Source: Escallonia rubra (taxonomy: Eukaryota; Streptophyta; Magnoliopsida; Escalloniales; Escalloniaceae). From it: a stretch of DNA of 64,000 bases. Shown one piece after another: positions 4,374 to 52,702 of the stretch (positions are counted from its first letter, which is position 1; the number at the start of each line of letters is the position of its first letter). The notes under the pieces were generated by a model. That model saw nothing but the letters and a program-made list of their open reading frames with translations, ran no database searches and was not told where the DNA came from. The translations under genes were made by a program, and so were the position numbers. The stretch lies in assembly GCA_033065855.1 (NCBI GenBank), contig JAVXUO010000684.1, positions 310,001 to 374,000 of the forward strand, in the 5' to 3' direction.

Positions 4374-5189
4374 GTTTGTGTTGCCGAGGAAAGTTGGTTC
4401 GCGTGCCACGTGAGGTGCCACAAAGGATGCAGTCTGCGTTGGCTTCCAGGTAGACGAAGTGGGAGACAGCAAGGATGGAGTAAGGGCTGAGAGCAAGGCT
4501 CCCCAGACGAACAGGGGCGACAGTCAGCAGTCGACAGTCCGGATCAAGGGTGCAGCGTCGATGGTCCAACGTCAAGAGGTGGAATGTCTTTCTCTCACTA
4601 GAAATCCAGAGAGAATAAGTTTTAGAGAGAGAAAGTGAAATGTTGAAAATGAGAGAGAGGTCCTGAATAAGCTCCAGAATCCACTATATATAGGCCCAAA
4701 TATGCGCGTGTCATCAGCCGACACGTGTCGTCCTCCGGGAGTGACACGTTGTCGTAGGGGTCCCACAGTATTGATTGTCCGCCGGATATGTCGGTTCATG
4801 CCGCCCTGCCCTTGCAGCGTCCCTCTGCCTGTCTGAGGAGACTGACCACACCGCGGTAGCATGGTCAGAGCAGCCTGTTGCCCCAGCCTCCAGTCCAAGC
4901 CCTTACTGAATCCCATGAGATGCATCATTAGACGCGTAGAGATCCTGGCAGCGGTGAAGGTTGCCCCAGCAGCCAACTGTCAGGCGTGCCGGATGCGATG
5001 CCCTCCGAGGACCTGCTCCCGTCCCGGAGTGACCCGCGGTCCATTACCTTCACGACGTCGGTGATTGATGGTGATATGAGCGCTCATGTTCATGGCTTGA
5101 TGCTCGGAGTCCGTAGCGGGGGTTCTTGTGCTGAAGCGCTACCCCAAGAGCCCGTCGATTGGTCGCGCGGGCGAGGGCCGGAGCCCCCC

Positions 5190-5785
5190 GGTTGATTGGG
5201 CGGACAAAGGCCGGAGCCCGTCGCTTTGATTGAGGCGGCGATGGCTTCAAGGTTGCGAGCCCATCCCGGTGCGAGGGCTGGAGCCCCATCGCTTTGATTG
5301 AGACGGCGACGGCTTAAAGGTTGAGAGCCCATCCCGGTGCGAGGACAGGAGCCCCGTCGCTTTGATTGAGACAGCGATGGCTTCAAGGTTGCGAGCCCAT
5401 CCCGGTGCAAGGGCCGGAGCCCCGTCGCTTTGATTGAGACGGCGATGGCTTCAAGGTTGCGTGCCCATCCCGGTGCGAGGGCCGGAGCCCCGTCACTTTG
5501 ATTGAGACGGCGATGGCTTCAAGGTTGCGAGCCCATCCCGGTGCGAGGGGCGGAGCCCCGTCGCTTTGATTGAGACGGTGATGGCTTCAAGGTTGCGAGC
5601 CCATCCCGGTGCGAGGGCCGGAGCCCCGTCACTTTGATTGAGACGGCGATGGCTTCAAGGTTGCGAGCCCATCCCGGTGCGAGGGGCGGAGCCCCGTCGC
5701 TTTGATTGAGACGGTGATGGCTTCAAGGTTGCGAGCCCATCCCGGTGCGAGGGCCGGAGCCCCGTCGCTTTGATTGAGACGGCGA
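5190..5785. repeat. 68-bp tandem array in the 3' LTR of copy A
   Basis: About nine units with the core GTCGCTTTGATTGAGACGGC; the unit also contains GGCTTCAAGGTTGCGAGCC. Matching arrays lie at 18655-19250 (about nine units) and 46495-46830 (about five units). Confidence 0.85.
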
Positions 5786-5899
5786 TAATGAATGTCGCGC
5801 TACTGAAGATAGCGGGTGAGTACCGCGGGAGTGAGAAACCAGTCATATGGCAAGTACCCTTCACAAGGCCATGGAGGCCGAGCTTCATCTTCACCAAGG

Positions 5900-6130
5900 C
5901 AGGAGGTGGCCGACCCCTTAAGGGTGGCCGACCCCTCCTTCACCAAGGAAGGGGGAGGCCGACCCCCTAGGAGTGGCTGACCCCTCCTTCACCAAGGAAG
6001 GGGGAGGCCGAAACCCTAGGGGTGGCCGACCCTTCTCTGACCAAGGAAGGGGGAGGCCGACCCCCTATGGGTGGCCGAGCCCTCCTTCACCAAGGAAGGG
6101 GGAGGCCGACCCCCTAGGGCTGGCTGACCC
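5900..6130. repeat. 48-bp tandem array in the 3' LTR of copy A
   Basis: Units contain GGTGGCCGACCCCTCCTTC followed by ACCAAGGAAGGGGGAGGCCG. Counterparts with other unit numbers lie at 19372-19650 and 46955-47330. Confidence 0.85.
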
Positions 6131-6300
6131 TTCGGGGGGGCACACCTGATCGCCGTCCGTCCGTCCGGGGCATTGCGCTCTGACCGAGCAAAGATGTTGA
6201 GCGATGTTGACCGTCAAACGGGTGACGTGTCATGCTTCCATGTCATGCCACTGGGATCTCTTAGCGGGCCCCGGGGTACGGTCCAAATAGGTTATGAACA

Positions 6301-6312
6301 TAAGCCCCCTGC
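6301..6312 (-). other. Polypurine tract of gypsy copy A
   Basis: Read on the minus strand, GCAGGGGGCTTA stands directly before the 3' LTR. The same tract precedes the second LTR of the related element at 63901-63912, which supports its role as the plus-strand primer. Confidence 0.75.
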
Positions 6313-6463
6313 GTGTGGGGTGCGCGGAGGGGCAACCCAAGCGGGCGCCGCACGCATAAACGATGTTGGGAGGTGCTTGAGAAGCGAAAGAAATAGGGGG
6401 GGGGGGCGAAACAACAAAGGTGGGAACGATATTGGTGGCGGAGAAAGAAGAAGAAAAATGGAG

Positions 6464-6470
6464 TATATAA
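6464..6470 (+). promoter_or_regulatory. TATA box of the antisense mobile-domain gene
   Basis: TATATAA lies 126 bases before the ATG at 6596, followed by a purine-rich leader (AGAGAGAGAGAAG). It faces away from the retrotransposon transcript, so the gene appears to have its own promoter next to the 3' LTR. Confidence 0.55.
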
Positions 6471-6595
6471 AAAAGAATGGAGCGCGAAAAGGAAAAGAAG
6501 AAAAGTTAAGATGGACGGTTGAGATTGGGAGGGAAAAGAGCTCATTTGTATTTTAACTAAGAGAGAGAGAAGAAAGAGAGAGAAAAAAAAGAAAA

Positions 6596-9500
6596 ATGGT
6601 GAGAGAAGGGAAGCAGACGGCCGAGGGGTCGGCGGGTGAAGGGGGTCGGCGTCTGCAGGGGGTCGGCGGAGATGGGGAGAAGGAAAGAATGGAAGGGAGG
6701 AGGGAAGAAAGGGGAGGGACCATTGCGGGGAAAGGGGGCTCGTCAGGGGGAGAGGGGTCGGCCGCAAGGGGGTCGGCCACCCCAGGTGGATCGGCCAGTA
6801 CGGTGGAGAGAAGGGGAGATCGGAGGGAGGAAAGGGAAGAGAGAGGGGGGTCGGCCGCACGAAGTGTGTCGGCCACCCGTGGTGGTTCGGTGGTGCATCC
6901 AAGTTCGGGGGGTGGTGTGGGGGGAAGAGAGAGGGAAGGTCGCCGGGAGGAGAGGCGCTCGGTAGTGAACAGGGGGTCGGCGGGGGAAGGGGGGTCGGCG
7001 GCGGTAGGGGGGTCGGCGGGGCCAAGGGCCAAGGCCAAGACCGCGCCTGCCGAGCCGGCGCCCGCATCAAAAAAGTTGAAGCAAAAGGTGGTAGCGAAGC
7101 CACGAGGTGGTGCGGCGAGGACAGGGCGAACGCTTTGAGTTGTGACGACAGAGCCAGTGCCGGCACCGCTTACGGATGATGAGGTCACAGCGACGGGTGG
7201 TGGGACTGGGTTGCCATTGGAGTTCGACGACGGGCTGGTGAGAACATTTGATGCAGAGCCGAACAAGTCGAACACAGTGCTGGGAGTGAAGGGGGTAGTA
7301 CCGGCCATACCAGACCGTGAATTGTGGAGGGAGTTGGCTATCCGGGTGGCTGATGGCACGTTCACAGTGCCTTGGAGTGGCGTGTCGATGGGCGAGGAGC
7401 CGCGAGTGCCGTCGCCATACGTGCGAGCGCCGAGTTGGGAGGAGGCGCCCGTGCCGTCACCCAGGTATGTGCCGAGGCTGTTGGTGAAGCGGGAGGATAT
7501 ACCTTGGGCACCGATAGTGTTCAAGGGCCATGGTGCGATGCCGTTGGGATGGGACTACTGGTGTTGGCACATGTTAGATACACCGCGGTGGGATGCATTG
7601 CTGCATACGTTGGGGTTGTGGCCGGTGGTGGACATGTCCGGGAGGGGACTGGAGCTGTACAGGGATACGCTGGGGATGACCCTATTGTCGAGGTGAAGTG
7701 CCCAGACGCACACATTCATGACGGAGTTTGGAGAGATCGGGCCCACGCTACTAGATGTGATGATGCTGACGGGGCTGCCGATGAGCGGAGAGCTGGATGC
7801 TCGTGTGACGCGACTCACCGGGGAGGAACGTGTGTTGCAGACGCAGTTGCTTGACATGCTGTCGGGGACGAGGAATCATCGGAAGGGGACGTATGGTGGG
7901 TGGCTGCGGTTGTTTTATGGCATCGCACAGTCGAGGTCGAGTCACAGATCGAACGGTGGCACATATTTCGTGATGGGTCCGTACCACAACGACGAGCGAT
8001 ACGAGATGGTGGCCTTCCTGACGATGTTGCTGTCAAGGTAGATCTTTGCACTTTCATGGCTTGTAAGTAATATTCGTGTAACCGCATTGTATGCCTAACA
8101 TAAGAAATTACTGTATTTGCAGATATGTGTTTGAGGGGACACCGGAGGATGGCATTTCCCCGAGGGTGATCCCGTTGGCGATTCGGATGGCGCAGGGGAA
8201 GCGCGTTGGGTTAGCTCCAGTTTATCTGGGCACCATGTTTTCGCGTCTGGACCAGTTCGTAAATGACGTGAAGCGGTCGCATGGGCGGTACCAGGTGGCG
8301 ACATATGTGGACTGGATGTTCTTACAGAGATACTTGTATGAGTGCTTCCCGGATTATCGGCCGGCGGACTACCCGCGTGAGCACCTGCTTCCGACGATGA
8401 GGACGGTGACGCATGGTGGCAAGCCACGAGAGATGGCGATGTGGACTGCTGGGTGTCGGACATTTGCCTGGGCGGGGATCAAGAGGCCTGATTGCCCGCT
8501 ATCACGGTTGTTAGACTCACGCGAGGCATATCTGGTGCGGGCCGTACAGCGATATGCACCCCTCATATGGAGTACCTCCCTGGTTGCACGGACAGGAGGT
8601 GTCAAGGGACTTAACCCGGAGGGGTGGCTTGGCACCGTCAGATGTTGCGCTGCTGGTGGCGTATTTCCCGGGGTGGCTGCCAGTGATGACAGATGACGGT
8701 GGGAAGCCCGCGGAGAACTTGTACTACGTGGCCCGCTATTGTCCAGACCGGCTATCATGGACATTCGGCTATGACTTAGAGCCGCCGTGTGGGTACCGCG
8801 ACCCGTGGAGCGTGGCGACTGCATTTGGGTATACGCGGTTTGACAGAGTTCGTGACTGGCCAACACCGGTGACGGAGTGGAGGTGGCCGGGGATAGCGGC
8901 TGTGGGGGCAATGACCGCGGAGTATGCCCAGTGGTGGGAGCGACTGCGGGGGAGCTGGTGGAGTGGCTAGCGCAGCTAGCCGGGTCACGTCGCGTGGTAG
9001 ACATGTTTGCGTGCGACCAGGCTTTGAGCTTGATATCGATGACGGCTGCGAGGAAGGCTGGCATGTTGGCGTTGGTGACGGGGAATGCAGCGGCAGCCAC
9101 TGAGAGAGGTTCAGATGCGGAACAGGAAGAAGAGGGCGAGGGATCCGAGGGGTACGTCCTGGAGGAGGAGCATGAGGAGGAACCGGCAGCAGCGGCACCA
9201 CGTGTACCAGGGGCCGGCAAGGGGTCGCTTTCGGCACTTCGGTTGGGCATGATGGAGAGTGTGCGGGAGGCGAGTGCAGGCGCGTCGAGCTCACGGTTGG
9301 CAGGGTCGAAGAGGCCACGAGAGGCATTGGACGATCCAGCGATCGAGGTAAGCTTTGTGATAGTCATGTCTTGAGTCGTATTTGTTGACATTAAACATAA
9401 AACGAAGTTTATATACTGACAATTCTTTATTAACAGGAACATGAGCAGATAGTGGAGGAAGTCGGGGATGTCGGCCTGATGGTTGCCGCAGATGAGGCAG

Positions 9501-10588
9501 AGGTAGTTGAGGTGAGCGAGCCGGCAAGCGGGGATGGACCGGCGGTGGCTGGTACGTCAGGTGTTGATGCGAGCGATAGGGTGAGTCCGCCGCCGAGCGC
9601 CAAGGAAAGAGTGGAGGATGTGTTTGGCGGTCCGATTGACGAGTCGCTGATGTTTGACGCGAGCGGCTTTTGGTGGCCAGAGGCAGCGACAGAGACTACC
9701 GTGGTCGGGTGGGAGGGGCCGGTGGCGTTGGAGTCTGCAGTGGTGGCCCCGGTTTCGGTTCAGGAGGTGGAGGTGCCGGTACAGCCAGTGCAGTTGGTCG
9801 CTGGTACGTCGTCGGGGTCAGCTGCAGAGGCGAGTGCGACACTGATGGTGATGTACTCGGTGGATGTCGGTGTTCAGATTGCAGGGGGAGTGCGGGAGGG
9901 GCCGGCGGTAGCGGTGAGTGGCACAGTTGGAGAGGCGAGTAGGGGATCGTCAAGTGGCCAGGCTGACGTGGTAGTGTGGGAGAGCCTCCAGCTGCCGTCT
10001 GAGACAGTGCGTCGGTTGGAGTTGGTGAAGGCGGCGTACCCGCAGACGTTCGAGGGAGTGAATGTGACGAACCCGGTTCTGCAGAGATGGGTGTATTCAG
10101 GGTTTATAGAGTGGTTGCTGCCTCTTGCGAGTGTGCCCGCGGCGGGTTGGACGACAGAGCTTGTCGAGCGATCGGTGAAAGAGTTTGCACCATTCACCTC
10201 GTTGGGCGTGCAGCTGGATTGGTTGGCCGAGTTTTTGAGATCGTGGATCGATGGCGGAGGCGTGGGAGAGAAGATGGCCTTGGTGCACATGGAGGAGGTT
10301 TTGCTCGAGAGGCGCCCGGAAGGGTTGGAGGCAGAGCAGTCAGAGATCAACGGAGAGTTGGTCGTGATTGATAGAGAGGTGGCGGAGATTGAGAGGCAGC
10401 TGTCTAACCTGCAGAGACGTCTGAGCGATCTCCAGAGGCGGCATACGGATGTGGAGGTACGAGAGGCCGAGCGGCTGAGGCGGTATGCTGAGTTCGAGGC
10501 AGGATGGTCAGCATTGCAGGTCCAGCGCCAATCACTACAGGCATTGAGCTCTCACCCAGTAGCAGTGCTGTTATCGAGTTTTCTGTAG
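6596..10588 (+). CDS. Plant mobile domain (PMD) protein gene carried antisense in the gypsy element; degraded
   Basis: The start ATG at 6596 is in good context (A at -3, G at +4). The first 180 codons are Gly/Arg/Ser-rich. The PMD core follows: FKGHGAMPLGWDYWCW, AQTHTFMTEFGEIGPTLLDV, MMLTGLPMSGE, then after an intron YVFEGTPEDGISPRVIPLAI, LAPVYLGTMFSRLDQF and WAGIKRPDCP. An acidic Glu-rich stretch and a heptad-rich coiled coil (about 10330-10540, IDREVAEIERQLSNLQRRL) complete it. Introns are 8038-8122 and 9348-9436, both GT-AG, and the joined frames match. Damage: TGA at 7136-7138, TGA at 7694-7696, and frameshifts near 8550 and 8950. PMD proteins of the MAIN/MAIL1 group act in nuclear silencing with PP7-type phosphatases; PMDs are also known from transposable elements. 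The function here is unknown. Confidence 0.82.
8038..8122 (+). other. Intron 1 of the PMD gene
   Basis: GT at 8038, AG at 8121-8122, 85 bases, T-rich before the acceptor. Splicing joins an Arg codon and changes the frame in just the way needed to continue the PMD at YVFEGTPEDG. Confidence 0.8.
9348..9436 (+). other. Intron 2 of the PMD gene
   Basis: GTAAGC donor at 9348 and TTAACAG acceptor ending at 9436, 89 bases, AT-rich. It is phase 0 between GAG and GAA, and the downstream frame is open to 10588. Confidence 0.82.
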
Positions 10589-10648
10589 GTTGACCATAGA
10601 TTTGATGTTTAGGTAGGGCCCGATAGCGGCCGCCGACTTCTTATGCAG

Positions 10649-10683
<35 letters not shown>

Positions 10684-11099
10684 GTACACAAAGTGTGATT
10701 GCATGCTGTATTGTTAATATCTGTCGTCAAAGTGTGATATGTGTGTTGTATGCTGCGAGTGTGTGTTGCGTTTGTTGATGGTCTCCCCCCCCCCATTCTC
10801 TTTGGTTTCTCCTTCTTGATTTTTATTGTTAATAAGAAAACCCGTCAAGAGCAAACACGTGATAATCATAAATGAATGCAAAAGCATAAGTTAAGCGGAG
10901 ACGCATGGAGTGAAAAGACTGTACATTGATAGTGCTTGGATCAAAGAAACGTCATTTACATGAAATGGTCCTTGTAATAAGCAACAGAAAGTACAGGCAA
11001 GTACACGTGGGGATATACACAAAATGCCACGTTGAGTATGCTGAACTACAAGCAGCGGACCGCAGGGTGGGGGGGGGGGGGAAACAAGCTACGAACTGA
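10589..11099. other. Spacer between integrase and the antisense mobile-domain gene
   Basis: The two genes converge here. The stretch holds a (TA)n tract at 10651-10678 and C- and G-runs at 10788 and 11067. No frame of interest. Confidence 0.6.
10651..10678. repeat. (TA)n microsatellite
   Basis: Fourteen consecutive AT dinucleotides. Confidence 0.95.
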
Positions 11100-12221
11100 T
11101 CATGCATAGTATTTCTTCAGGTAGCGGCCGTTGACATGCGCGATAAGCTGTCCGTCTTCCGGGTTGATCAGGAGGTAGGAGCTGTTGCTTCTGGCCGTAT
11201 GTATTTCAAATGGCCCCTCCCAATTGGGTGTGAATTTGGGAGCCGACTGGTTGGCCCGTACATGTTTGGCGGCTTGGAGGACAAGATCTCCTTCTGTGAA
11301 CGAGCGAGGTTCGACAGTCTTTCCGTAGGCACTGACAAGCTTTTCATGATATTTCTTCATTCGACGCAAGGCGTTGGCCCTTTTTTCATCAAGGCCTTCG
11401 AGTGCCGCCATTCTGGTTTCTTCCTCCTCGAGACCGCTGTTGAGGGATAGTCGTGCCGAGGCGACTGCAACCTCGGCAGGCACTACACATTCATCTCCGT
11501 ATACAAGAGAGAAGGGCGTGGCCTTTGTAGCGGTGTGTCTAGAAGTTCTGTAAGCCCAAAAGGCATGACTTAGCTTTTCGGACCAGGAGTTGTTCGCGTC
11601 ATGGACCATGCGTGGTAAGACGCGCAGTAGAGTTTTGTTGGAGGCTTCAGCTTGACCGTTGCCTTGCGGGTAATATGGAGTTGATGTGGCATGATTGATG
11701 TCATCCGCTTCGGTGAGAGTCCGAACATCCCGATTGATGAATGGTGTGCCATTGTCAGAGATAATACACCGCGGGATGCCGAAGCGACATACGATGTGAT
11801 CGCGTAAGAAGTTGGCGATGGCACCCCCCATGGCTTTGCGTAAAGGTATGGCTTCGACCCACTTCTTGAAGCACTCCGTCGCGACCATGATCCAAATGTG
11901 ACCCTTCGATGGCAGATGTATAGGACCGATAAGGTCAAGAGCCCAAGAATGAAATGGCCAAGGGGCCACGATCATACGAAGGTCGGATGCTGGCATGTGC
12001 ATTCTGTTAGCGTGCCGCTGGCACGGTTGGCAGTGTCGTACATGAGAGATGGCGTCAGATTCCATAGTCGGCCAGTAGTATCCCAACCTGAGCAGTTCTG
12101 TATACAACTTTTGAGAGCCTTGGTGTTCGCCACAAGCACCGTTGTGCACTTCATTGAGTACCTCTGTCGCTTGGGCACCCTGCAAGCATCGTAGGGTGCC
12201 TGTCCCGAAAATCCCTTGCAA
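11100..12221 (-). CDS. Integrase of gypsy copy A
   Basis: 373 residues in an open frame. The N-terminal zinc-binding domain shows H...H and HVRHCQPCQRH. The catalytic core has D in ALDLIGPIHLPSKG, D in IISDNGTPF and E in GNGQAEASNKT, the intact D,D,E triad. The C-terminal part (SFTEGDLVLQ, NWEGPFEI) is the usual GPY/F-like region. The natural start is not here: integrase is cleaved from the polyprotein, and a single-base frameshift near 12225 separates it from the upstream frame. It ends at a stop at 11100. This is the best-preserved enzyme of the element. Confidence 0.88.
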   Translation of the reverse strand: MQGIFGTGTLRCLQGAQATEVLNEVHNGACGEHQGSQKLYTELLRLGYYWPTMESDAISHVRHCQPCQRHANRMHMPASDLRMIVAPWPFHSWALDLIGPIHLPSKGHIWIMVATECFKKWVEAIPLRKAMGGAIANFLRDHIVCRFGIPRCIISDNGTPFINRDVRTLTEADDINHATSTPYYPQGNGQAEASNKTLLRVLPRMVHDANNSWSEKLSHAFWAYRTSRHTATKATPFSLVYGDECVVPAEVAVASARLSLNSGLEEEETRMAALEGLDEKRANALRRMKKYHEKLVSAYGKTVEPRSFTEGDLVLQAAKHVRANQSAPKFTPNWEGPFEIHTARSNSSYLLINPEDGQLIAHVNGRYLKKYYA

Positions 12222-13558
12222 AATAACTCGCCTTCTGTTTCGAAATACTTGACCGATTTATGCTTGATGGATCGTGTCGTACCGCGGTCAGGTGGCAGCA
12301 GTCCATGGGATAGATATTGCAGGAAAGGCTGGCGCCAGTCACCCCCGACATCGACCACAAGAGCTTCCGTATTGTCTGGTGCATATAGGCATTCCGAGCA
12401 ACTCTGCTGTATATCTGAAGCATCCTTGGCCATGGATGGCCAAAAGAGACCCATCCGCTGAAGACGACGGTAGAGTGGTGGTCCGTCAAGGCCACAACAC
12501 TTCTGATGTCCGTTTTGCAACTTGTGTTTTGCCTCTGCTGGTGCCAAACATCGGGCCAGAGTTCCTCCGGGACATCGCCTGTATAAGACGTCTCCCAACA
12601 TTAAGAAATTTGTGAGGGTGAAGACGGAAGCGAGTGACGATGCCCTAAGCTGGTCGGTGATTGGCTGCCTCCAGTCGTCGATCGTGGTGTCCTTTGGCAC
12701 TAAGTTCAATGCTATGCATGGCGCTGTTCTCTTGATAACGGTTAACATGCGCTGTTCACCATCAATGTCTATCTTAGACGCAATCATGGCTAAGTTGTCC
12801 TCATGTCGATTGTGGCATCTATTGTGATGTTCATATTGGACATGGCCAAGTTGTCCCTCCAAGTGTTGTACCAGAGCACGGTAGGGTGCCAAGGCTGGCT
12901 CTTTGACCGCGAACTCCCCATCGGCCTGCTTCATGATCAAGTTGGAGTCCCCTTTTATACGTAATGATCTAGCCCCCATGCTGATGGCCAGCATGAGGCC
13001 GATAACGAGGGCCTCGTACTCAGCTTCATTATTAGACACCGGGAATGCAAGTTTGAAGGATATGGATGTAGTGACACCTTCTGGATTTCGCAAGACAATA
13101 CCGGCACCTCCTTGCCGGAGAGGAGCTCCATCGGGCCCTTTGCTAGTGGCTAAGTCGTCGAACTCGAGCATCCACATTTCACCGATGTCAGAAAATAGGG
13201 CTGTCTCTTCCCCTGGCAGTCGATATGAGGTTGGCTCATATTGTTGGCGCGGGAAGAAAGCCAGGAGGTCCGCGAGTGCCTGGCTTCGTAAAGCCGTAGG
13301 ATTCTTGATGGAAAGTCCGAACTCGGCTAATAGCAGTAACCAACGAGTAAGTCGTCCTGATAGGGCGGGGCGCATAAGCATATACCGCAGCGGGTCAGCC
13401 TTGGTAACAAGTGTAATCTGGTACGACAGAAAATAGTGCCTGAATTTCTGCGAGGCATAGACCAAGGCGAAGCAGTGTTTTTCGAGCTCGGAGTAATTGG
13501 CCTCGGGGCCCCTGATCGATCGACTGAGATAATAAACTGGGCGCTCCACCCCATCCAC
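12222..13558 (-). pseudogene. RNase H, second (archaeal-like) RNase H and first zinc-binding module
   Basis: The frame begins in RNase H (VERPVYYLSRSIRGPEANYS, SELEKHCFALVYA). It continues with a second RNase H of the type found in Tat elements: MLEFDD, GAGIVLRNPEGV, NNEAEYEALVIGL, RIKGDSNLIM. It then shows DWRQPITDQL, LYRRCPGG, ARCLAPAEA and a His/Cys region ending SCSEC. A second DWRQP...LFCKGFSG segment follows before a frameshift near 12225 leads into integrase. The module from DWRQP to the His/Cys motif thus occurs twice. Confidence 0.82.
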
Positions 13559-14870
13559 CTCTTGGGCGAGTAACGCCCCTATGGACCTGGTCGTGGAGGT
13601 CAGATAAAGTAGGAGTGGGATACCCCGCTACGGTACTACCATGGTCCGTGGCGACATGAGAACTGCCTTGATCTGTTCGAATGCTTGTTGTTGGGGCGCA
13701 CCCCAACTCCACGGTGCGCTCTTGCTTGTCAAGTGCTGAAAGGGCGCGATGAGTTCGGCCAAGGCAGGGATGAATCGGCGGAGGTAAGAGACCTTGCCGA
13801 GGAAGCTCTTCAATTGTTTGGTGCTCTTGGGAGGGGACATCTCTTGGATGGAGGCGGCTTTAGAAGGGTCAATGTCAATGCCCTGTTGACTGACCAAAAA
13901 GCCGAGGAATTTGCCGGAAGAGACTCCAAAGGCGCATTTCAACGGATTCATCCGCGTGTTGTATTGTCGACAACGATCGAAGACTACCCGAAGGTCTGTG
14001 AGATGTTCACTTTCCTTTTTAGACTTGATGATAAGATCGTCGACATAGTCCTCCACTGTGCGGTGTATCATGTCGTGGAATATAGCTGTCATGGCCCTCT
14101 GATAAGTGGCACCCGTATTCTTGAGACCGAAGGGCATGACCTTCCAACAAAAGTTGCCCATTGAGGTTCGGAAAGCTGTCTTAGCATAATCATCTGGGTT
14201 CATCCGAATCTAGTTGTAGCTGGCAAAGCCGTCCATGAAAGACAAAGTCTCATGTCCAGCGGCAGCTTCCGTGAGCATGTCAATATTGGGCAGTGGAAAT
14301 TCATCTTTAGGGCAAGCCTTGTTCAGATCGCGAAAATCAATACAGACGCGGATCTGTCCATTTTTCTTCTGCACAGGAACAACATTGACCAACCAGATAG
14401 GATGGGTGATGGGTTCGATGAAGCCAGCCTGGAGAAGTCGTTCGATCTCTTACTTGATCTTTATTTCAAGTTCGGGGAGGAAGGACCGCGAATGCTATCA
14501 AACTGGGCTAAACCCGTTGGCAATGTTGAGATGGTGGGCTACCAAGTTAGGATCTAGTCCGGGCATTTCGTTGTAACTCCATGCCAGCACATCGCGATAT
14601 TCGCGGAGAAGGGCAACCAGTCCTTCTCTTCGGCCCGGTGCGAGTTTCGTGCCGATGTAGGTCTGTCGAGGTTCCTCGCCCGGATCAGCCAGGTTAATTT
14701 CTTCAAGATCTTCAGCCTGCGGTCGAGGGCCGTCTTCGTAGCAAGGCGGGGCAGCGCCCGGAGTGAGCTCGTGATCTGGCGGACAATGCTCAGCAGTACA
14801 ACACCATTCTGTCTTTGTAGGTACGTCGTGGTGGAAGGGGCCAGGAAGCGAACCCCCCGGAGCCCCCAGA
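13559..14870 (-). pseudogene. Reverse transcriptase and RNase H, gypsy copy A
   Basis: Order of motifs: LAWSYNEMPGLDPNLVAHHLN, VPVQKKNGQIRVCIDFRDLN, LSFMDGFASYN, the catalytic YVDDLIIKSK (near 14045), FLGFLVSQQGID, then the connection and the start of RNase H. These are the Ty3/gypsy RT fingers, palm and thumb in the right order. TAG at 14210-14212 interrupts the palm right after the first catalytic Asp motif, and another TAG lies near 13625. Both aspartates of YVDD remain. Confidence 0.9.
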
Positions 14871-14875
14871 CACCG

Positions 14876-15697
14876 TCATAATTGGTAGATCGTTCTTCCG
14901 TCCTTAAAGACGCGCTGGAAGGTGGTTTCATGCTTGTGCTTCTTGGACTTGGGAGATGAGGGTGGCGAAACGGCAGTGGTAGCAGGCGGCGCTGTCGAAG
15001 TTGATGCTTTGCCTCGGCTGTTTTTCTTGGATTTAGGTTTGGTCTTGGCGGGCTTGTTCCCACACAGCTCAGCCCAATCAGGGAGTTTGGTGGAGTGGAT
15101 GTGAGTAGCATTCTCACTATCTGCAGCCAATTCGGTGTAGAAGGAGGCCTCGACAAAGTAAGACTCGACACATTCAAAAGGGGCCCTGGTGGCGGGGATG
15201 GTTACTGCTACCTCATGTCCCGCGGGACCGGCCACTAGTTTCACACACTGGTGGTACGTCGAGGGAACAGCCTTGTTGAAATGAATCCAAGGTCGCCCAA
15301 GTAGGAGGTGGAATGAGGACTCGCTGTCAATCACATGAAAGGTGGTGTCACGACGGACGGTTCCGACCATAAGGTCGACGGTGATGTGGCCAAGGGTAGA
15401 CTGAGGGCCCTGCCCGAAACCAGTGATCTTGATGGGGTCATGGATGATCCTTCTTGGCGGTATGCCGGCCTGCTGCAGAGTGATGAGTGGGATGATGTTG
15501 ATCGAGGCGTCGTAATCTACCAAGGCGCGACGGAAGCCGGTGCCGTTAACAGTGCACTCAAGGTACAGTGGCCGGTTATGGTGCTCAACTGTTGGTGAGT
15601 CCTCGTCCGAAAATATGAATGCAGTTGAAGGGACATGTCTGAGTTCGGCCTGGGCAGCGAAGCACTCGTGCCTGAGGCCCGTCGTGACCTCGATCAA
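14876..15697 (-). pseudogene. Retropepsin-like protease domain, gypsy copy A
   Basis: The aspartic protease that would cut the polyprotein is recognised by the flap and core region: RPLYLECTVNGTGFRRALVD, then SINIIPLITLQQAGI, KITGFGQ and FHLLLGRPWIH. The catalytic triplet expected as D-[ST]-G reads D-Y-D here, which would abolish activity. In copy B the same site reads D-C-G. The frame runs on through a Lys/Ser-rich linker (KTKPKSKKNSRGK) and stops at 14876 before the RT part. Confidence 0.85.
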
Positions 15698-15721
15698 ACA
15701 ATCTGAGAGGTAAGTTCATGC

Positions 15722-17729
15722 TGCGGATGAAAACCCCATTTCATCCAAGAAAGCCTTGATCTTCGTCATTTGTCCAGCCGAGGACACTGGCTGGGGAGCA
15801 GATGGCACATAAGTTGTAACCGTTGGCGGGACTTCCGTGAAGGCTTCGGGGACAAACAGCTCGACATGGTCGGTGGCCACCATGAGCACCTGATGCTCGT
15901 GGTTACTGTCATCGTGGTTTGGGTACGGCTCTTTCCGTACATCGCGGTTCTTTCGCAACTGTAAGTCGCCCGACGCGATCTTCCTTGCAAAGATGGATAG
16001 AAATGCATTGCAATTCTGAAGCGAGTGGCCCAGGGCTTGGTGGTAGGCGCAATAGTTGGGCCTGGTCCTTTCTTCGTCTGTGATGGGGACTCACACAGGC
16101 GGCAATCGGAAGTTGTTGTCATTGGCAACCCATTCAATCAAGAGTTGTTTCACCGTGTTCAAATCGCATGGAAAAGCAGGCGGCGTCTCCCTCTGTCGCC
16201 GTTTGTCGGGGCGTTGATCCCTATCCGGGAACTGACGTTTAAAGCCGGAGTAGCTGCTAACGTTGCTGTTGTTAGTGCTTGCGCTGTTGTGTTGAGTACT
16301 GGTCGTGTCTGCTGAGGCCAGCAATGCATTATGTGGTCGAGGCCTCCATGGTTTGACAAGCCCAACTGTCTCGTAAGTACGTCGGGCTGCTTCTTTAAGA
16401 TGTCCCCACGACTTCAACTGCAAATTCTCGAGGTGCACCCGATAGACATCATTCATGTTCTTAACGCATACGGGCACCAACGTCTCATCTTTACTGAAGT
16501 CTGTGCACTCGAGACACTTAAGATGGAAACGGTGCACATATTTGGTCAAGTCTTCGCCAGGAGCCTGGCGGATGCTGGCGATATCTACTATGGTGATACG
16601 CTCAGCTTCGTAGTGGAATTTGTCCATGAAGAGTTGGACCATCTCATTCCAGGAATGGACCATCCCCACAGGGATCTGATGGTACCAAGTATAGGCCAAG
16701 CCTGTGAGGGACTTGTGAAATTCTCTCAGTTTCAAACTATCGCCCGGTCCGTACTGCTCTAACAAACCGGCGAATCTGGTTAGGTGCTCACGGGCGTTGC
16801 CTTCACGTCCGTTGAAGAGCACGAAAGTGGGTTGCTTGTACTTGAGCGGGTAGGGGATGATGGCTATTTCGTCACCATACGGCGCGTGGCCTGTCAATTG
16901 ATCCGATGAGCTATGAGCGGATTTGTGTGACATGCGTCTAAGGAGTGCATCAAAGTCAACCTTGGAGACATAGCGGGAGGGTGGCTCTTCCTGGCTGGTT
17001 AAAGGTTGATGGCCGGTAGGTGCTCCGCGTGCCCCGGAGCACCCAGATGGCACAACTTGGTGGGCAGGAGCGGTTGAAGGATGACACACGGCAGGCGCTG
17101 ATGTGAGTAGATGAAGGGCGGCATGGGTGGACGGGCGAGACATTTCCATCACTTGGCCTGTCATCTAATGCTGCTCCATCGGGTAAGGGTTAGGCTCCAG
17201 CTCAATGGACTCATGAGTCTCAGAAGAGCTCCTGGCTGGCACGTACTGAGGCACAACAGCAGGGGGGACTTGTTGTAACACTGGCCCAAGGTCTGGCTGT
17301 AATTTGTGTGGCGGCATCGCGGGGCGCAGCGTGTCAGCTATGAGCAGGGGAGGTGTCGCGAGTCCTGCCACCAAGGATCTGGAAGGCTGAGGCGGCGGTG
17401 GTCACGACACTGGGGCTTGGGCGACATCAGCGGACAGCCCAAGCCCTACGGGCTGAATCGGTGCACTCTGCTGCGAGGCCATTGCTTTTATCGATTTCTG
17501 CATCTCCAATATGGCAGCCATGAGTGAAGCTTGAGAATCTTGTCTACTGGCTATGGTGGGAGTAAACTGCTGGATGGCCATGCTGACCGCCACTTGCAGG
17601 TCGGGTGCGGGAGGATCTTGGGTGCGTACATCACTAGTCTCTTCTTGGTCGCCGACGTCATGCTCCTCTCGGATGGTGGGGTCGAGAAACTTGGCTTACT
17701 GTCTTGGTAAGTCCTCGTCGTACAGGCAT
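15722..17729 (-). pseudogene. gag: gag region of gypsy copy A, broken
   Basis: Gag forms the retrotransposon particle. The likely start is ATG at 17729 (MPVRRGLTK), just after the primer site. The protein has a Pro/Gln-rich N-terminal part, then the retrotransposon gag core around FNGREGNAREHLTRF and LTGLAYTWYHQIPVG, then a Lys/Arg-rich end and a degenerate zinc knuckle (YAYHQALGHSLQNC in copy B). Damage in copy A: a frameshift near 17690, TAG at 17165-17167 where copy B has CAG, and TGA at 16091-16093 where copy B has CGA. Copy B is intact at each of these positions but broken elsewhere. Confidence 0.85.
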
Positions 17730-17770
17730 GGTCGCTTGTGTGTGGCGGACTGCAACGCGATGCTCACCTC

Positions 17771-17788
17771 CCCAGCAGAGTCGCCAAA
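17771..17788 (-). other. Primer-binding site of gypsy copy A
   Basis: Next to the 5' LTR the minus strand reads TTTGGCGACTCTGCTGGG. The TGG start fits pairing with the CCA end of a tRNA. I could not assign the tRNA. The site recurs in copy B (45624-45641) and in the plus-strand relative (60749-60766, one base different). Confidence 0.7.
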
Positions 17789-18135
17789 TGTTGCCAAGGA
17801 AAGTTGGTTCGCGTGCCACGTGAGGTGCCACAAAGGATGCATTCTGCGTTGGCTTCCAGGTAGACGAAGTGGAAGACAGTAAGGATGGAGTAAGGGCTGA
17901 GAGCAAAGCTCCCCAGACAGGTCGCGAGGGCTGGCAGCGCCGCGTCAGCAAGGGGACGACGAACAGGGGCGACAGTCAGCAGTTGGCAGTCTGGATCAAG
18001 GGTGCAACGTCGATGGTCCAACGTCAGGAGGTGGAATGTCTTTCTCTCACTAGAAATCCAGAGAGAATAAGTTTTAGAGAGAGAAAGTGAAATGTTCAAA
18101 ATGAGAGAGAGATCCTGAATAAGCTCCAGAATCCA

Positions 18136-18180
18136 CTATATATAGGCCCAAATATGCCCATGTCATCAGCCGACACGTGT
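18136..18180 (-). promoter_or_regulatory. LTR core promoter: TATA box and G-box
   Basis: On the minus strand CTATATATAGTGG is preceded about 30 bases upstream by a CACGTG core. The same arrangement occurs in the other LTRs (4684-4730, 45990-46035 and, in plus orientation, 60355-60400), so it is conserved across the family. The transcript would start about 30 bases downstream, close to the TCTCTCTC tract. Confidence 0.6.
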
Positions 18181-18654
18181 CGTCCTCCGGGAGTGACACG
18201 TTGCCGTAAGGGTCCCACAGTATTGATTGTCCGTCGGATATGCCAGTCCCCGAGTTCATGCCGCCCTGCCCTTACAGCGTCCCTCTGCCTGTTTGAGGAC
18301 ACTGACCACACCGTGGTAGCATGGTCAGAGCAGCCCGTTGCCCCAGCCTCCAGTCCAAGCCCTTACTGAATCCCACGAGATGCGTCATGAGACGCGCAGA
18401 GATCCTGGCAGCGGTGAAGGTTGCCCCTGCAGCCAACTGCCATGCGTGCCGGATACGATGCCCTCCGAGGACCTGCTCCCATCCCGGAGTGACCCGCCGT
18501 CCATTACCTTGACGACGTCGGTGATCGATGGTGATATGAGCGCGCATGTTCATGGCTTAATGCTCGGAGTCCGTAGCGGGGGTTCTCGTGCTGAAGCGCT
18601 ACGAGCGGAGCCCTCAAGAGCCCGTTGATTGGTCGCGCGGGCGAGGGCTGGAGC

Positions 18655-19250
18655 CCCCCGGTTGATTGGGCGGACAAAGGCCGGAGCCCCGTCGCTTTGA
18701 TTGATGCGGCAATGGCTTCAAGGTTGCAAGCCTATCTCGGTGCGAGGGCCAGAGCCCCGTCGCTTTGATTGAAACGGCAACGGCTTCAAGGTTGCGAGCC
18801 CATCCCGGTGCGAGGGCCGGAGCCCCGTCGCTTTGATTGAGACGGCGATGGCTTCAAGGTTGCGAGCCCATCCCGGTGCGAGGGCCGGAGCCCCGTCGCT
18901 TTGATTGAGACGGCGATGGCTTCAAGGTTGCGAGCCCATCCCGGTGCGAGGGCCGGAGCCCCGTCGCTTTGATTGAGACGGCGATGGCTTCAAGGTTGCG
19001 AGCCCATCCCGGTGCGAGGGCCGGAGCCCCGTCGCTTTGATTGAGACGGCGATGGCTTCAAGGTTGCGAGCCCATCCCGGTGCGAGGGCCGGAGCCCCGT
19101 CGCTTTGATTGAGACGGCGATGGCTTCAAGGTTGCGAGCCCATCCCGGTGCGAGGGCCGGAGCCCCGTCGCTTTGATTGAGACGGCGATGGCTTCAAGGT
19201 TGCGAGCCCATCCTGGTGCGAGGGCCGGAGCCCCGTCGCTTTGATTGAGA
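18655..19250. repeat. 68-bp tandem array in the 5' LTR of copy A
   Basis: About nine units. Five consecutive inner units (18830-19200) are virtually identical, whereas the outer ones diverge, which suggests recent amplification inside the array. Confidence 0.85.
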
Positions 19251-19371
19251 TGGCAATAATGAATGCCGCGCTACTGAAGATAGCGGGTGAGTGCCGCGGG
19301 AGTGAGAAACCAGTCATACGGCAAGTACCCTTCACAAGGCCATGGAGGCCGAGCTTCCTCTTCACCAAGGC

Positions 19372-19650
19372 AGGAGGTGGCCGACCCCCTGAGGGTGGCC
19401 GACCCCTCCTTCACCAAGGAAGGGGGAGGTCGACCCCCTAGGAGTGGCCGACCCGTCCTTCACCAAGGAAGGGGGAGGCCGACCTCCTAGGAGTGGCCGA
19501 CCCCTCCTTCACCAAGGAAGGGGGAGGCCGACCCCTAGGGGTGGCCGACCCCTCCTTGACCAAGGAAGGGGGAGGCCGACCCCCTAGGGGTGGCCGAGCC
19601 CTCCTTCACCAAGGAAGGGGGAGGCCGACCCCTATGGGTGGCCGACCCCT
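19372..19650. repeat. 48-bp tandem array in the 5' LTR of copy A
   Basis: About six units of the GGTGGCCGACC...CCTTCACCAAGGAAGGGGGA repeat. Units differ mainly in the count of C residues and in GGAGTGG versus GGGGTGG. Confidence 0.85.
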
Positions 19651-19823
19651 CGGGGGGGCACACCTGATCTCCGTTCGTCCGTCCGGGGCATTGCGCTCTG
19701 ACCGAGCAAAGATTTTGAGCGATGTTGACCGTCAAATGGGTGACGTGTCATGCTTCCGTGTCATGCCACTGGGATCTCTTTGCGGGCCCCGGGGTACGGT
19801 CCAAATAGGTTGTGAACAGTTTG

Positions 19824-20224
19824 TATATTAAATCTACTTTTATATTGGCATTAACAAACAAAGTATTCAAGATTTACATATTAGCTTTACTAAACACATT
19901 AACTATGTGTTCATCTATGTTCACATGTTGGTTTGTAATTGAGAGATGAAAGAAAAGTCAAAGGAGATACGAAAGAGAAAGATAAATGGAGGTGGGTTTG
20001 TGACGGTAGAAGATGTTCAGGGATGGAAGCTGCCCATTTTTATTGGATATGTGGCGATGGTGGTTCAAGTGAGAATAAATCGGGGATGGCGGCAATGGTG
20101 GGTTTCGTGAAAATGAAAGAGAAAATAGAGAGGGGAGGGCAATGAGAACGATGAGAAATGAATATATTTTAGGTTGAAAAATGATGGGCGGGATCTTCAA
20201 ATATTTGGTGAAGGTTTGAATTTG
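19824..20224. other. MULE interior right of the gypsy insertion, no gene seen
   Basis: AT-rich sequence shared at high identity with 47515-47930. No frame could be assigned. Confidence 0.55.
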
Positions 20225-20381
20225 AATTTTTTATTTCACAAGGTTGACCATGGTTAAGGTTTGTTATCAATTTAGATACTTGCCCTACTTAAACATCCTG
20301 CTTAGTTGGCAACTTTTTAGTGGTAGTCTAGCATCACATAAGCTGATAACGTGGTGTTAGACAACCACTAAATATTTTCTC
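20225..20381 (-). repeat. Right inverted arm of the MLP-interrupting MULE
   Basis: Inverted counterpart of 3506-3655. It ends GAGAAAATATTT (minus strand) against the MLP codons. It is duplicated at about 47930-48072. Confidence 0.8.
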
Positions 20382-20444
20382 ATGAACTACATTCCCATCA
20401 CTCTTAATTTCAGTTTGGGATACAACCTTACCAGTTATACCCAT
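20382..20444 (-). pseudogene. MLP-like gene, start of exon 1 (copy A)
   Basis: ATG at 20444 opens MGITGKVVSQTEIKSDG followed by N-V-V-H. This is the highly conserved N-terminus of MLP-like proteins (family form xxLxGKxxxxxEIKSDGDVFHE). The frame is cut after 21 codons by the MULE. The rest of the exon is at 3363-3505. A TATA box at about 20519-20525 (minus strand) lies 75 bases upstream of the ATG, so the promoter of the former gene is still here. Confidence 0.82.
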
Positions 20445-20515
20445 CTCTTGCCTGATATGCCCCCGAGCTATTAACAAACAATGCAGAATATAATTGAGAA
20501 AACACTTGGCCCGTC

Positions 20516-20530
20516 GGCCTTTTATATTTT
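20516..20530 (-). promoter_or_regulatory. TATA box of the interrupted MLP-like gene
   Basis: AAAATATAAAAGGCC on the minus strand, about 75-85 bases upstream of the MLP start codon, which leaves room for a leader of roughly 45 bases. Copy B retains the same box about 80 bases above 48135. Confidence 0.5.
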
Positions 20531-20950
20531 CTCGGTTTGCTACGAACCGATAGCTATACTTATTCACTTCATGTTTCTCAAGAAACAATTGAAGGCGGAT
20601 AAATTCTTTTTTTTTCCTTTTGGTTCGTTTTTTTGGGTAAGTTATCAACTGCTAAGTAGGGTAACACTGTAAATGGAGGTGGAAAAGCCGTCACAATCGG
20701 CAAAACGTGAATCGCGTTATGAAAAGAAAGAGGGCTCTCTGTCCTTTGAACATATATCAAGCATCAAAATGGACTCTGGAGGTTCACAGTAGACACGTGG
20801 TGGATGGCAGCAAGCGGAAAAATTGAGGGGAAAGATATGGAACTGTTTGTTGTGTTGTGTTGGTTTTTGAGGTAAGAATAGGCATGACAAGATTTACAAC
20901 GGGGTGGAGATGTCAGCTTTAGACTTGAACACTCGTGGAATGCAATAACT

Positions 20951-21689
20951 GAGGACAACTGTTGTCTTTGCTCTAACCATCAAGAAAGTACGGAAAATCT
21001 ATTCATGACCTATCTTTGCACTCAAATTCTATAGAAAGAAATTGTTCACAAGCTGTAGATTACTCAAGTTTGTGCTAATTGGGCTCAATTGCTTCATAAT
21101 GATATCTGTAAATTCGGAAGTAAAAGCTTTAGAGTAGTTTTAAGCAAGTTAACACTGGCAGTGACTTTTTATGGAATCTGGAAGGATAGAACTGATAGAT
21201 ATTTAACTGTCCCACATCGAGAGGTCAATGAGGTTCTTACAAAAATTGAGCTTTCGATAAAAAAATCGTTTACTGAGCTGGAAGAAAGCTGTTGCCTCTT
21301 CAGTAAACAAGAAATTATGCCAGATCTGGAATCTTCCTTACAAAGTGCTGACCCCTGACTTGCTGTGTACATAGTTTTATACGTGCATTGTTTTACCCGT
21401 GAGATGATAAATTTGTACCAATGATCGTCTGATTTCATTGATAATAAAGGACCTGTTAACAAATATTTTTTTTTTACGCAGCTCTGTACATGGATTCTGA
21501 AGCTATGTGAGTATTTTTTTTGTTGGAATGTCCAAGAAATGCCGTGGAATAATACACCCAGAACATGAGGATGCTCTTGCAGCTTATGCCGCGGTGCGGT
21601 TCGCATTGGAAGCTGGTTTTTTTAAGGTACAGGTTGTTTCAGCACTGTCAAAGGATGATGATGATTTTTTAGCCACAAGTAAATTGTAA
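20951..21689 (+). pseudogene. LINE (L1-like) relic: zinc-binding RT tail and RNase H-like piece (copy A)
   Basis: The first piece begins DNCCLCSNHQESTENLF, the Cys-x2-Cys...His pattern of the zinc-binding region after LINE reverse transcriptase, in which a typical member reads CxLCxxxxETxxHLFFxC. It continues with FRVVLSKLTLAVTFYGIWKD, the usual LAWxAxxYxxWxERN segment. After stops, the stretch at 21525-21689 gives HEDALAAYAAVRFALEAGF, like the plant RNase H (RVT_3) domain that assigns EALAxRxALxxA. Stops at about 21030 and 21356 break it. Copy B is at 48646-49375. Confidence 0.6.
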
Positions 21690-22380
21690 AAGATGTACGA
21701 GGGTGCTCGTTTGTTTCACTGATGTGAATTTGTTTTCGTGCGATGGTACTGATCATGTAGCGGCCATGATTGAGATGGCACGAAAAAGGTGCAATTTTGT
21801 AAATGATTTTGTTATTTGAATACATCAGGCGCTCCTGCTCATTACGTGGTCTATCGAAAAGACATGAACTTTACCTAATTTTTCAAATAAACAGCTTTTA
21901 TGTCAAGAAATAATAAAAATAAGAAAACAATGATAGCTAAAGCTACCAACTAAATTGTCACGGCTGGGCCTTGATATCGGCAGTAATGTCAGTGATCCTG
22001 TAAAATAATATGAAAGGATCTAGAAGAAAATAGAATTGTTATTCTTATCCCTGCCTGCCTGGGGCAATCATCCACTTGACTGCTTTTTTTACTCTTATGA
22101 AAAGATTTTGTGTCGGATTTAGTAGGAAAAACGAAAACTAATAGAATAGAATATGTCATTTCATTCTTTGACGAGTCCCATCGCTTTTAATTTGAGAAAA
22201 ATTCTCATCTAGTAGACCCATCTCTTCCCAGAGCACACAAGAAATAAATGCATAAATAGCTAGGTAAACTTAAAACTTTAAGTACTTCTCAACCCTAATT
22301 ACTATCTTGTTGTACTCTATTTATTATTTAATCATCAACAATAATATGTAACCTATATAGTATGTTCAATGAATAGGGTC
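21690..22380. other. AT-rich stretch, no gene recognised
   Basis: Shared with 49376-51360 apart from the MULE inserted in copy B. It contains the empty site of that MULE at about 21995-22010 (AAATAATAT once). Confidence 0.6.
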
Positions 22381-22790
22381 TCATTAACTTAAAAAAAATT
22401 GAATAGGCTCTCTGTGACTGGTCATCATGAATGTTGTAAAGGCCCAATTATCAGTGACAAGTTTCGTCGGTCCAAATCAATTCGATTCGTACAAGTCGCT
22501 AAAACTAAACTATTTAATTATGATTTTTTTAAGAGCCGAATCAATCGAATTGTACTCACCTTTAATCCCAAAAGTAGTCTTACCGGTTCATGTGACGGAA
22601 AAAACAATAGAAGCTTCATGCGATTTTTTAAAAAAATTGTGAAAGGACAGCCCTGTGGACAAGCTTACTAGAAGATTAGAAATATTGTATTCCCTATCAC
22701 AAAAGGTAGTAAATCCTTTTCACAAAGAACAAATTTAATAAAACAACCGAATCGATGCAGCTCTTACGGAATAGCATGTCATTGCACTAA
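22381..22790. repeat. Old duplicate of 32380-32830
   Basis: Weak collinear similarity: AAAGTAGTCTTACCGGTTCA here versus AGAGTAGCCTCACCAATTCA there, followed by similar GTGxCxGAAxxAACAATAGAA, a CCTxGTGGAxAAGCTT block and a TTGTATTCCCT block. Both versions are also present in copy B. The origin is unknown. Confidence 0.55.
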
Positions 22791-24068: not shown

Positions 24069-24073
24069 GATTA

Positions 24074-24529: not shown

Positions 24530-24530
24530 T

Positions 24531-24546
24531 TGGTATCAGAGCATGA
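24531..24546 (+). other. Primer-binding site of the copia element (initiator tRNA-Met type)
   Basis: TGGTATCAGAGCATG, two bases after the LTR, is the standard plant Ty1/copia site complementary to initiator tRNA-Met. Confidence 0.9.
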
Positions 24547-27048: not shown

Positions 27049-27074
27049 CGCTAATGTTTTCTTTTGTTATTAGG

Positions 27075-31430: not shown

Positions 31431-31435
31431 GATTA

Positions 31436-52700: not shown

Positions 52701-52702
52701 TA

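What the first reader, a model, noticed from the sequence alone, without database searches (positions are those of the whole stretch)
6464..10588. Intron-containing plant mobile domain gene carried antisense inside a Tat-type gypsy retrotransposon
Seen: between integrase and 3' LTR the opposite strand encodes a PMD core (for example AQTHTFMTEFGEIGPTLLDV), an acidic region and a C-terminal coiled coil. It has its own TATA box at 6464 and two GT-AG introns (8038-8122, 9348-9436) whose removal joins the frames exactly. Known: PMD proteins MAIN/MAIL1 take part in transposon silencing, and PMDs have been noted in transposable elements. Inference: because the genomic RNA of the element runs the other way, these introns are invisible to splicing and survive retrotransposition. 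The element may thus carry a separately expressed nuclear protein that could interfere with host silencing, and the antisense transcript could also pair with the genomic RNA.
Basis: partly seen in the sequence, partly recalled or inferred. Interest (0 to 1): 0.85.

Follow-up and report, generated by a model that had tools for sequence, protein, structure and literature searches.

The report
Antisense spliced gene inside a retrotransposon
A plant jumping element carries, written backwards inside itself, a split gene that looks separately switched on and whose protein has been kept by selection, so it probably helps the element, although the copy in this window is itself dead.

Summary
The window holds a 15.4-kb Tat-group Ty3/gypsy element (minus strand, 4379-19818, 5-bp target duplication). 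Between integrase and 3' LTR, antisense to pol, lies a plant mobile domain (PMD) gene with two GT-AG introns (8038-8122, 9348-9436). In 29 relatives from the same genome both introns are present; 23 of 30 loci have integrase on the opposite strand at similar distance. Six relatives are open through all three exons; among them dN/dS is 0.11, 0.15 and 0.16 (exon 1 core, exon 2, end of exon 3) against 0.13 for integrase and 0.45-0.48 in broken pairs. Constraint behind each intron implies spliced antisense mRNA. PMDs in Ogre elements and antisense accessory ORFs are published; my searches found no intron-bearing antisense gene in an LTR retrotransposon. Counter-silencing is a hypothesis; the start codon is unresolved; no RNA data were available.

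The parts
4374..4378 (.). target site duplication GTTTG
   Evidence: sequence
4379..6300 (-). 3' LTR of the element (1922 bp), with 68-bp and 49-bp tandem repeats
   Evidence: K2P to the 5' LTR 0.050
6464..6472 (+).
6596..6598 (+). conserved ATG, candidate start codon; in frame with the PMD core in 10 of 27 relatives of the first subfamily and 1 of 6 of the second
6599..7069 (+). G/C- and purine-rich low-complexity N-terminal stretch, length-variable between copies
7070..7087 (+). basic stretch KKLKQK, possible nuclear localisation signal (inference); near the start of the conserved part of the protein
6596..8037 (+). exon 1 (5' end uncertain); in-frame TGA at 7136-7138 and 7694-7696 in this copy; N-terminal half of the PMD at about 7697-8037
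8038..8122 (+). intron 1, 85 nt, GT-AG (GT in 29 of 30, AG in 30 of 30 aligned loci, window included)
8123..9347 (+). exon 2: rest of the PMD and an acidic region; a frame-shifted stretch between about 8.6 and 8.97 kb in this copy
9348..9436 (+). intron 2, 89 nt, GT-AG (GT in 29 of 30, AG in 29 of 30 aligned loci, window included)
9437..10588 (+). exon 3: variable first part (dN/dS 0.44) and conserved C-terminal part with predicted coiled coil (dN/dS 0.16); stop 10586-10588
11100..12257 (-). integrase (H2C2 and rve domains)
11972..13627 (-). RNase H followed by a second RNase H (RVT_3), between RT and integrase
13628..14209 (-). reverse transcriptase (part)
14876..15715 (-). aspartic protease region (match below the Pfam cut-off)
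16091..17164 (-). gag
17769..17786 (-). primer binding site TGGCGACTCTGCTGGGGA
17789..19818 (-). 5' LTR (2030 bp)
19819..19823 (.). target site duplication GTTTG

Best explanation
The element family carries a second transcription unit, antisense to gag-pol, in the space between integrase and 3' LTR. It has its own TATA box just inside the 3' LTR, three exons, and encodes a protein of about 1,090 residues plus an unsettled N-terminus: basic stretch, PMD, acidic region, C-terminal coiled coil. Because the RNA that is reverse transcribed is the other strand, where these introns read as CT...AC, splicing should not remove them and new copies inherit the introns. Shown here: the architecture, the conservation of introns and promoter box across the family, and purifying selection on the coding frame on both sides of each intron. 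Inferred: that spliced mRNA and protein are made. Hypothesis only: the protein works in the nucleus for the element, by interfering with the host PMD (MAIN/MAIL1) silencing complex or with chromatin at element copies. I give the counter-silencing step about 0.35. The copy in the window has lost both its reading frame and the conserved TATA box.
For: Integrase lies on the opposite strand at 3448-3964 bp in 23 of 30 PMD loci, window included. Introns: 30 of 30 aligned loci have both, with splice dinucleotides GT 29, AG 30, GT 29, AG 29 of 30, although intron sequence differs by 17-18% on average; 6 of 6 fetched copies of the second subfamily have them too. TATAAATA in 26 of 27 relatives; mononucleotide-shuffle chance 0.008 per copy. 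Open frames: 7 of 29 relatives in exon 1 core plus exon 2, 6 of these 7 also through exon 3 to the same stop. dN/dS among the six open copies: 0.11, 0.15, 0.44, 0.16 (exon 1 core, exon 2, exon 3 first 200 codons, exon 3 rest) against integrase 0.13. GY codon model: 0.201 over all 30 sequences (run, read) and 0.085 over ten open copies of two subfamilies. Control: seven pairs of broken copies pooled give 0.45 (transitions) and 0.48 (transversions) against 0.13 and 0.29 in open copies. Other frames of the open copies give 0.8 or more, apart from one reverse frame, and no reverse frame is open in exon 1 core or exon 2. The protein search scored 131 matches of 2324 first-look candidates, many without stops.
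Against: No RNA evidence was available. The ATG at 6596 is in frame about as often as one in three; read from it, 5 of 6 copies of the second subfamily stop after 194-218 residues, and the sixth reads 1261 residues but its C-terminal end departs from the first subfamily's. 22 of 29 relatives are broken in exon 1 core or exon 2. By transversions alone the PMD exons (0.27, 0.30) are less constrained than integrase (0.17), and in two other pairs of copies PMD exons give 0.38 and 0.45 against 0.19 for integrase. One of the seven broken pairs gives 0.24 and 0.25, close to open copies. The closest pairs (dS under 0.05, 15 pairs) give 0.33. Synonymous sites are probably hypermutable (CpG), which lowers dN/dS. 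In the first part of exon 3 open copies (0.50, 0.36) hardly differ from broken ones (0.67, 0.59). Nothing here bears directly on silencing.
Confidence: 0.72

Rival explanations
1. The antisense unit encodes a protein needed for the element's own life cycle (nuclear import, chromatin targeting of integration, or regulation of its transcription) and not a silencing suppressor. Structure and splicing are as in the best explanation; only the function differs.
For: Selection of about the same strength as on integrase by all changes, as expected of a core function. Antisense proteins of Grande and Retand have been suggested to be nuclear or regulatory (PMC7264820, parts 1-2 of 3 read; PMC11963269, part 1 of 5 and passages). 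Basic stretch and weakly predicted coiled coil.
Against: Retand elements carry TRP28 or other antisense proteins (PMC11963269), so a PMD as such is not universally needed. Host PMD proteins MAIN and MAIL1 act in silencing (PMC5418596, passages).
Confidence: 0.4
2. The antisense transcript acts as RNA (pairing with genomic RNA, siRNA source) and the open frame is incidental.
For: Antisense transcripts of this region are proposed to do so (PMC7264820). PMD genes are phasiRNA sources in tea (PMC10673657, passages).
Against: Frame-specific constraint: 0.08-0.15 in the coding frame of exons 1 and 2, about 1 or more in four of the five other frames, low also in one reverse frame. An RNA function does not predict this.
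Confidence: 0.07
3. A host PMD gene was recently captured by one element, and the introns are a leftover of capture.
For: Introns are typical of host genes. PMD capture by MULEs is published (PMC5418596, passages).
Against: 131 scored matches in the genome. The gypsy PMDs form their own long-branched clade apart from the tandem PMD genes and the MULE- or Ulp1-linked PMDs of the same genome. Intron 1 lies near model position 115-119, the gap in the MULE-type PMDs near 181, and L001-L004 have no intron in the PMD. An older capture is not excluded.
Confidence: 0.08
4. For this copy alone: a dead relic with no whole product.
For: Stops at 7136 and 7694, frame-shifted exon 2, conserved TATA box missing, LTR divergence 5%.
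Against: None found for the copy; it does not describe the family.
Confidence: 0.9

Closest known systems
Ogre-lineage Ty3/gypsy elements with a PMD-encoding extra ORF (Steinbauerova 2011, seen only as cited; Neumann 2019 PMC6317226; PMD-A1/A2 of Ikeda 2017 PMC5418596)
   Same: PMD in an extra gene of a Tat-group element with second RNase H before integrase; 57% of Ogre elements have a PMD in Neumann's survey (passage)
   Different: Neumann's survey scored uninterrupted ORFs of at least 250 codons; the passages I read mention an intron only between gag-protease and RT, none in extra ORFs, and no orientation for the PMD ORF. The word intron does not occur in the main text of PMC5418596
Antisense accessory genes of Grande (gene23), RIRE2 and Retand (aORF-3R, TRP28)
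   Same: Same place (between pol and 3' LTR), same orientation; Grande gene23 has its own promoter and a nuclear product (PMC7264820)
   Different: Other protein family (TRP28, Smc-like); the word intron does not occur in the main text of PMC11963269
Spliced antisense HBZ of HTLV-1 (sHBZ)
   Same: Works alike: a retroelement with an antisense, spliced mRNA (abstracts) for a nuclear protein (as stated in PMC11963269)
   Different: No sequence relation claimed or tested; analogy only
MAIN/MAIL1 host PMD proteins and MULE-linked PMDs
   Same: PMD domain
   Different: The gypsy PMDs form a separate clade from MULE- or Ulp1-linked and tandem PMD genes of this genome; MAIN/MAIL1 sequences themselves were not compared

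Membership tests
Ty3/gypsy, Tat group (Ogre/Retand type) | LTRs, 5-bp target duplication, gag-protease-RT-RNase H-integrase order | tested here: met
   the protease match is below its Pfam cut-off
Ty3/gypsy, Tat group (Ogre/Retand type) | second RNase H between RNase H and integrase | tested here: met
   RVT_3 at residues 171-280 of the 11972-13627 frame; criterion from PMC6317226
Ogre lineage | PBS complementary to tRNA-Arg | tested here: inconclusive
   PBS TGGCGACTCTGCTGGGGA looks of that type from recall; no tRNA gene was found in the four loci scanned; criterion from PMC9289625
Ogre lineage | RT phylogeny with Ogre; intron between gag-protease and RT frames | not tested
   no reference RT sequences were used
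PMD (PF10536) | match over the curated cut-off | tested here: met
   window piece 38 bits against 34.9; second piece 24.7 bits, below the cut-off
PMD-A clade (gypsy-encoded) of Ikeda 2017 | grouping with PMD-A1 or PMD-A2 in a tree | not testable with these tools
   no labelled references held; clade separate from MULE- or Ulp1-linked and tandem PMDs
Antisense accessory gene (aORF-3R) | coding region between pol and 3' LTR, antisense | tested here: met
Antisense accessory gene (aORF-3R) | own promoter and transcript | tested here: inconclusive
   conserved TATAAATA in 26 of 27 relatives; no transcript data
MAIN/MAIL1-type silencing factor | role in silencing, binding to PP7L | not testable with these tools
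   needs experiment

The most novel reading that the evidence does not exclude
A large lineage of plant LTR retrotransposons keeps a spliced, multi-exon, separately promoted antisense gene. It uses orientation to carry introns through reverse transcription, and its PMD protein counteracts the host's PMD-based silencing (MAIN/MAIL1), which makes this an arms race between two versions of one domain.
Probability: 0.3. Interest if true: 0.85.

Novelty: new variant of a known kind. Interest (0 to 1): 0.62.

Why it matters
Two published surveys of extra genes in plant retrotransposons scored uninterrupted ORFs (at least 250 codons in PMC6317226; mainly at least 600 bp in PMC11963269), so intron-bearing antisense genes could be cut up or missed. 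A gene under selection of about the strength seen on integrase, with introns that can persist because it is antisense, suggests that such elements keep a second, spliced gene. It also makes the open question whether element-encoded PMDs oppose the PMD silencing pathway directly testable.

Tried and rejected
Rejected: (a) constraint caused by a sense-strand (pol-strand) frame. Reverse frames of the six open copies hold stops in exon 1 core and exon 2; the one reverse frame with a low ratio (0.18-0.43) is, by my reasoning, the one that shares the wobble position. (b) dN/dS as an artefact of CpG decay alone. Broken pairs in the same sequence context give 0.45 and 0.48 pooled (single pairs 0.24-0.70 and 0.25-1.04), and transversions alone give 0.29 in open copies. 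(c) The 6464 TATA box as the family's promoter. (d) ATG 6596 as proven start. (e) Intron 1 shared with the MULE-type PMDs: their gap lies near model position 181, intron 1 here near 115-119.

Led nowhere: search of solved structures with the PMD piece, 0 hits up to E 1; tRNA scan of four PBS-motif loci, none; paper searches for antisense intron-bearing genes of LTR retrotransposons listed no plant paper that fits by title and abstract start. Steinbauerova 2011 and Gomez-Orte 2013 were seen only as cited. L047's context was not settled, and the integrase context of L065-L070 was not checked. One search aligned minus-strand loci unturned and was discarded; the stop counts began one base off and were replaced; one search stopped on an error and was redone. 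For distances and dN/dS over all copies, two truncated loci (L027, L034) were dropped. Of the 41 matches, loci were returned for 30 places (one is the window itself) and all 30 were aligned; the other matches were not checked for introns.
Full report
What is in the window. The element runs on the minus strand from 4379 to 19818: a 2030-bp 5' LTR (17789-19818), a 1922-bp 3' LTR (4379-6300) and GTTTG on both sides. The PBS reads TGGCGACTCTGCTGGGGA. Frames on the minus strand carry gag, a protease-like region, RT, RNase H, a second RNase H and integrase in that order. By the criteria in PMC6317226 (passages read) the second RNase H between RNase H and integrase places it in the Ogre/Retand part of the Tat group. 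The LTRs differ by K2P 0.050. With a recalled rate of 1.3e-8 per site per year that is about 2 million years.

The antisense gene. On the plus strand, between the 3' LTR and integrase, PF10536 matches in two pieces that meet at intron 1, the second below the family's cut-off. The introns 8038-8122 and 9348-9436 begin with GT and end with AG. In this copy the frame is broken by TGA at 7136 and 7694 and by a frame-shifted stretch in exon 2, so the window copy cannot make the whole protein.

The family. The window's own assembly (G000, 566 Mb, 3222 contigs) has many relatives. DNA searches with the gene, integrase and exon 3 gave 41, 40 and 41 matches, of 490, 526 and 233 first-look candidates, 40 scored in each. 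A protein search with one relative's exon 1 core gave 131 matches, 131 of 2324 candidates scored. I aligned the window and the 29 relatives whose loci were returned. In 23 of these 30 loci, the window included, an integrase match lies on the opposite strand 3448-3964 bp away; for the other seven no match was among the 40 scored.

Introns. Over the 30 aligned loci the donor of intron 1 is GT in 29 and the acceptor AG in 30; for intron 2 GT in 29 and AG in 29. Lengths are 84-89 and 72-114 nt. Mean pairwise differences over 28 of the 30 are 0.178 and 0.169 in the introns (two truncated loci left out). A second subfamily, whose six fetched copies are 76-77% identical in protein to the query, has GT-AG introns at the same two places in 6 of 6. 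Two of these copies are 98.8% identical over 5200 nt, with identical intron 1. If they are separate insertions, which I did not test, recent transposition carried the introns along.

Promoter. TATAAATA stands 77 to 104 nt before the ATG in 26 of 27 relatives that have the ATG site. The exception, L037, has unrelated sequence upstream. The window copy lacks the box. In the second subfamily 3 of 6 have TATAAATA exactly; the printed sequences show TATAAA in two more.

Selection. Seven of 29 relatives are open in exon 1 core and exon 2; six of these are open through exon 3 to the same stop, one has a stop in exon 3. Among the six, dN/dS by counting is 0.11 in exon 1 core, 0.15 in exon 2, 0.44 in the first 200 codons of exon 3 and 0.16 in the rest; integrase of the same six gives 0.13. 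Seven pairs of broken copies give 0.45 (transitions) and 0.48 (transversions) pooled, against 0.13 and 0.29 for open copies. Wrong frames give 0.8 or more except one reverse frame, 0.18 to 0.43, which I take to share the wobble position; none of the reverse frames is open in exon 1 core or exon 2. The GY codon model gives 0.201 over all 30 sequences and 0.085 over ten open copies of both subfamilies, with log-likelihood -6715.8 against -7352.6 when the ratio is held at 1 and kappa at 2 (kappa differs too, so this is not a clean one-parameter test). Four of the six second-subfamily copies were open in exon 1 core and exon 2 and were used there.

Results that weaken this. By transversions alone the PMD exons of the open copies give 0.27 and 0.30 against 0.17 for integrase, and in two other pairs of copies 0.38 and 0.45 against 0.19, so the constraint may be weaker than on integrase. 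One of the seven broken pairs gives 0.24 and 0.25. Pairs with dS under 0.05 give 0.33 (15 pairs). In the first part of exon 3 open copies (0.50, 0.36) hardly differ from broken ones (0.67, 0.59). Still, exon 2 and the end of exon 3 are constrained although they lie behind introns that would end or shift the frame; spliced mRNA is the simplest explanation.

What does not fit. The ATG at 6596 is in frame with the core in 10 of 27 relatives of the first subfamily, 3 of the 7 core-open ones among them, and in 1 of 6 of the second, as chance would give. Read from this ATG, five of the six second-subfamily copies stop after 194-218 residues; the sixth reads 1261 residues, with a C-terminal end unlike the first subfamily's. 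The region between the ATG and the core is low-complexity and varies in length. A further 5' intron, non-AUG start or local damage are all possible. Spliced HBZ mRNA of HTLV-1 uses internal initiation (abstract), which is an analogy only.

Relation to other PMDs. In a tree of 19 PMD rows from this genome the nine gypsy sequences form one clade (100/100) on a long branch, apart from a clade with MULE- or Ulp1-linked PMDs and from a tandem array of four PMD genes without introns in the domain. The tree has no labelled references, its root is arbitrary, and the program warns about long branches.

What is known. PMDs in Ogre elements (57% in Neumann 2019, passage), gypsy-only PMD-A clades and PMD capture by MULEs (Ikeda 2017, passages), PMD as the commonest non-canonical domain in a survey of LTR retrotransposons (PMC9289625, passages), antisense accessory genes, one with own promoter and nuclear product (PMC7264820, parts 1-2 of 3), and the counter-silencing idea (PMC8616336, passages) are all in print. 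My searches for an intron-bearing antisense gene in an LTR retrotransposon, and for PMD or antisense ORFs with gypsy, Ogre, Retand, gene23 or Steinbauerova, listed no paper that I could see reports one; most were seen as listings only, and the library lacks most subscription papers. I therefore call it a new variant of a known kind.

Mechanism. Shown: antisense gene, conserved introns, conserved promoter box, purifying selection. Inferred: a spliced antisense mRNA and a PMD protein. Hypothesis: the protein acts in the nucleus against PMD-based silencing (about 0.35) or in the element's own cycle (about 0.4).

Noticed in passing
14900-33102 and 42754-55158: Stretches of the two regions match at 89-96% over several kb, including part of the element's 5' half and its LTR: probably a segmental duplication in tandem.
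   Followed up: no
62464-63790 and 60876-61529: Two arrays of tandem repeats seen in the self-comparison.
   Followed up: no
59441-60821: LTR-like sequence in the opposite orientation, 83-87% identical to the element's LTRs in its main part and 69-74% in a shorter piece.
   Followed up: no
L046:1-9001 and L048:1-5406: Other PMD families of this genome sit next to a Ulp1-type protease domain (Peptidase_C48; over the cut-off in L048, just below it in L046), in L046 also a MULE transposase on the opposite strand; one search lists many copies with equal scores and open frames.
   Followed up: partly
L001-L004 (G000:C922): Tandem array of four PMD genes with full-length PMDs in one exon each, within about 19 kb.
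   Followed up: partly
L065-L070: A second subfamily with the same antisense gene, and repeated 11-residue units in the low-complexity N-terminal region.
   Followed up: partly
whole genome G000: The PBS-type motif occurs 876 times against 5 for the reversed control: elements with this primer site are probably very numerous.
   Followed up: no
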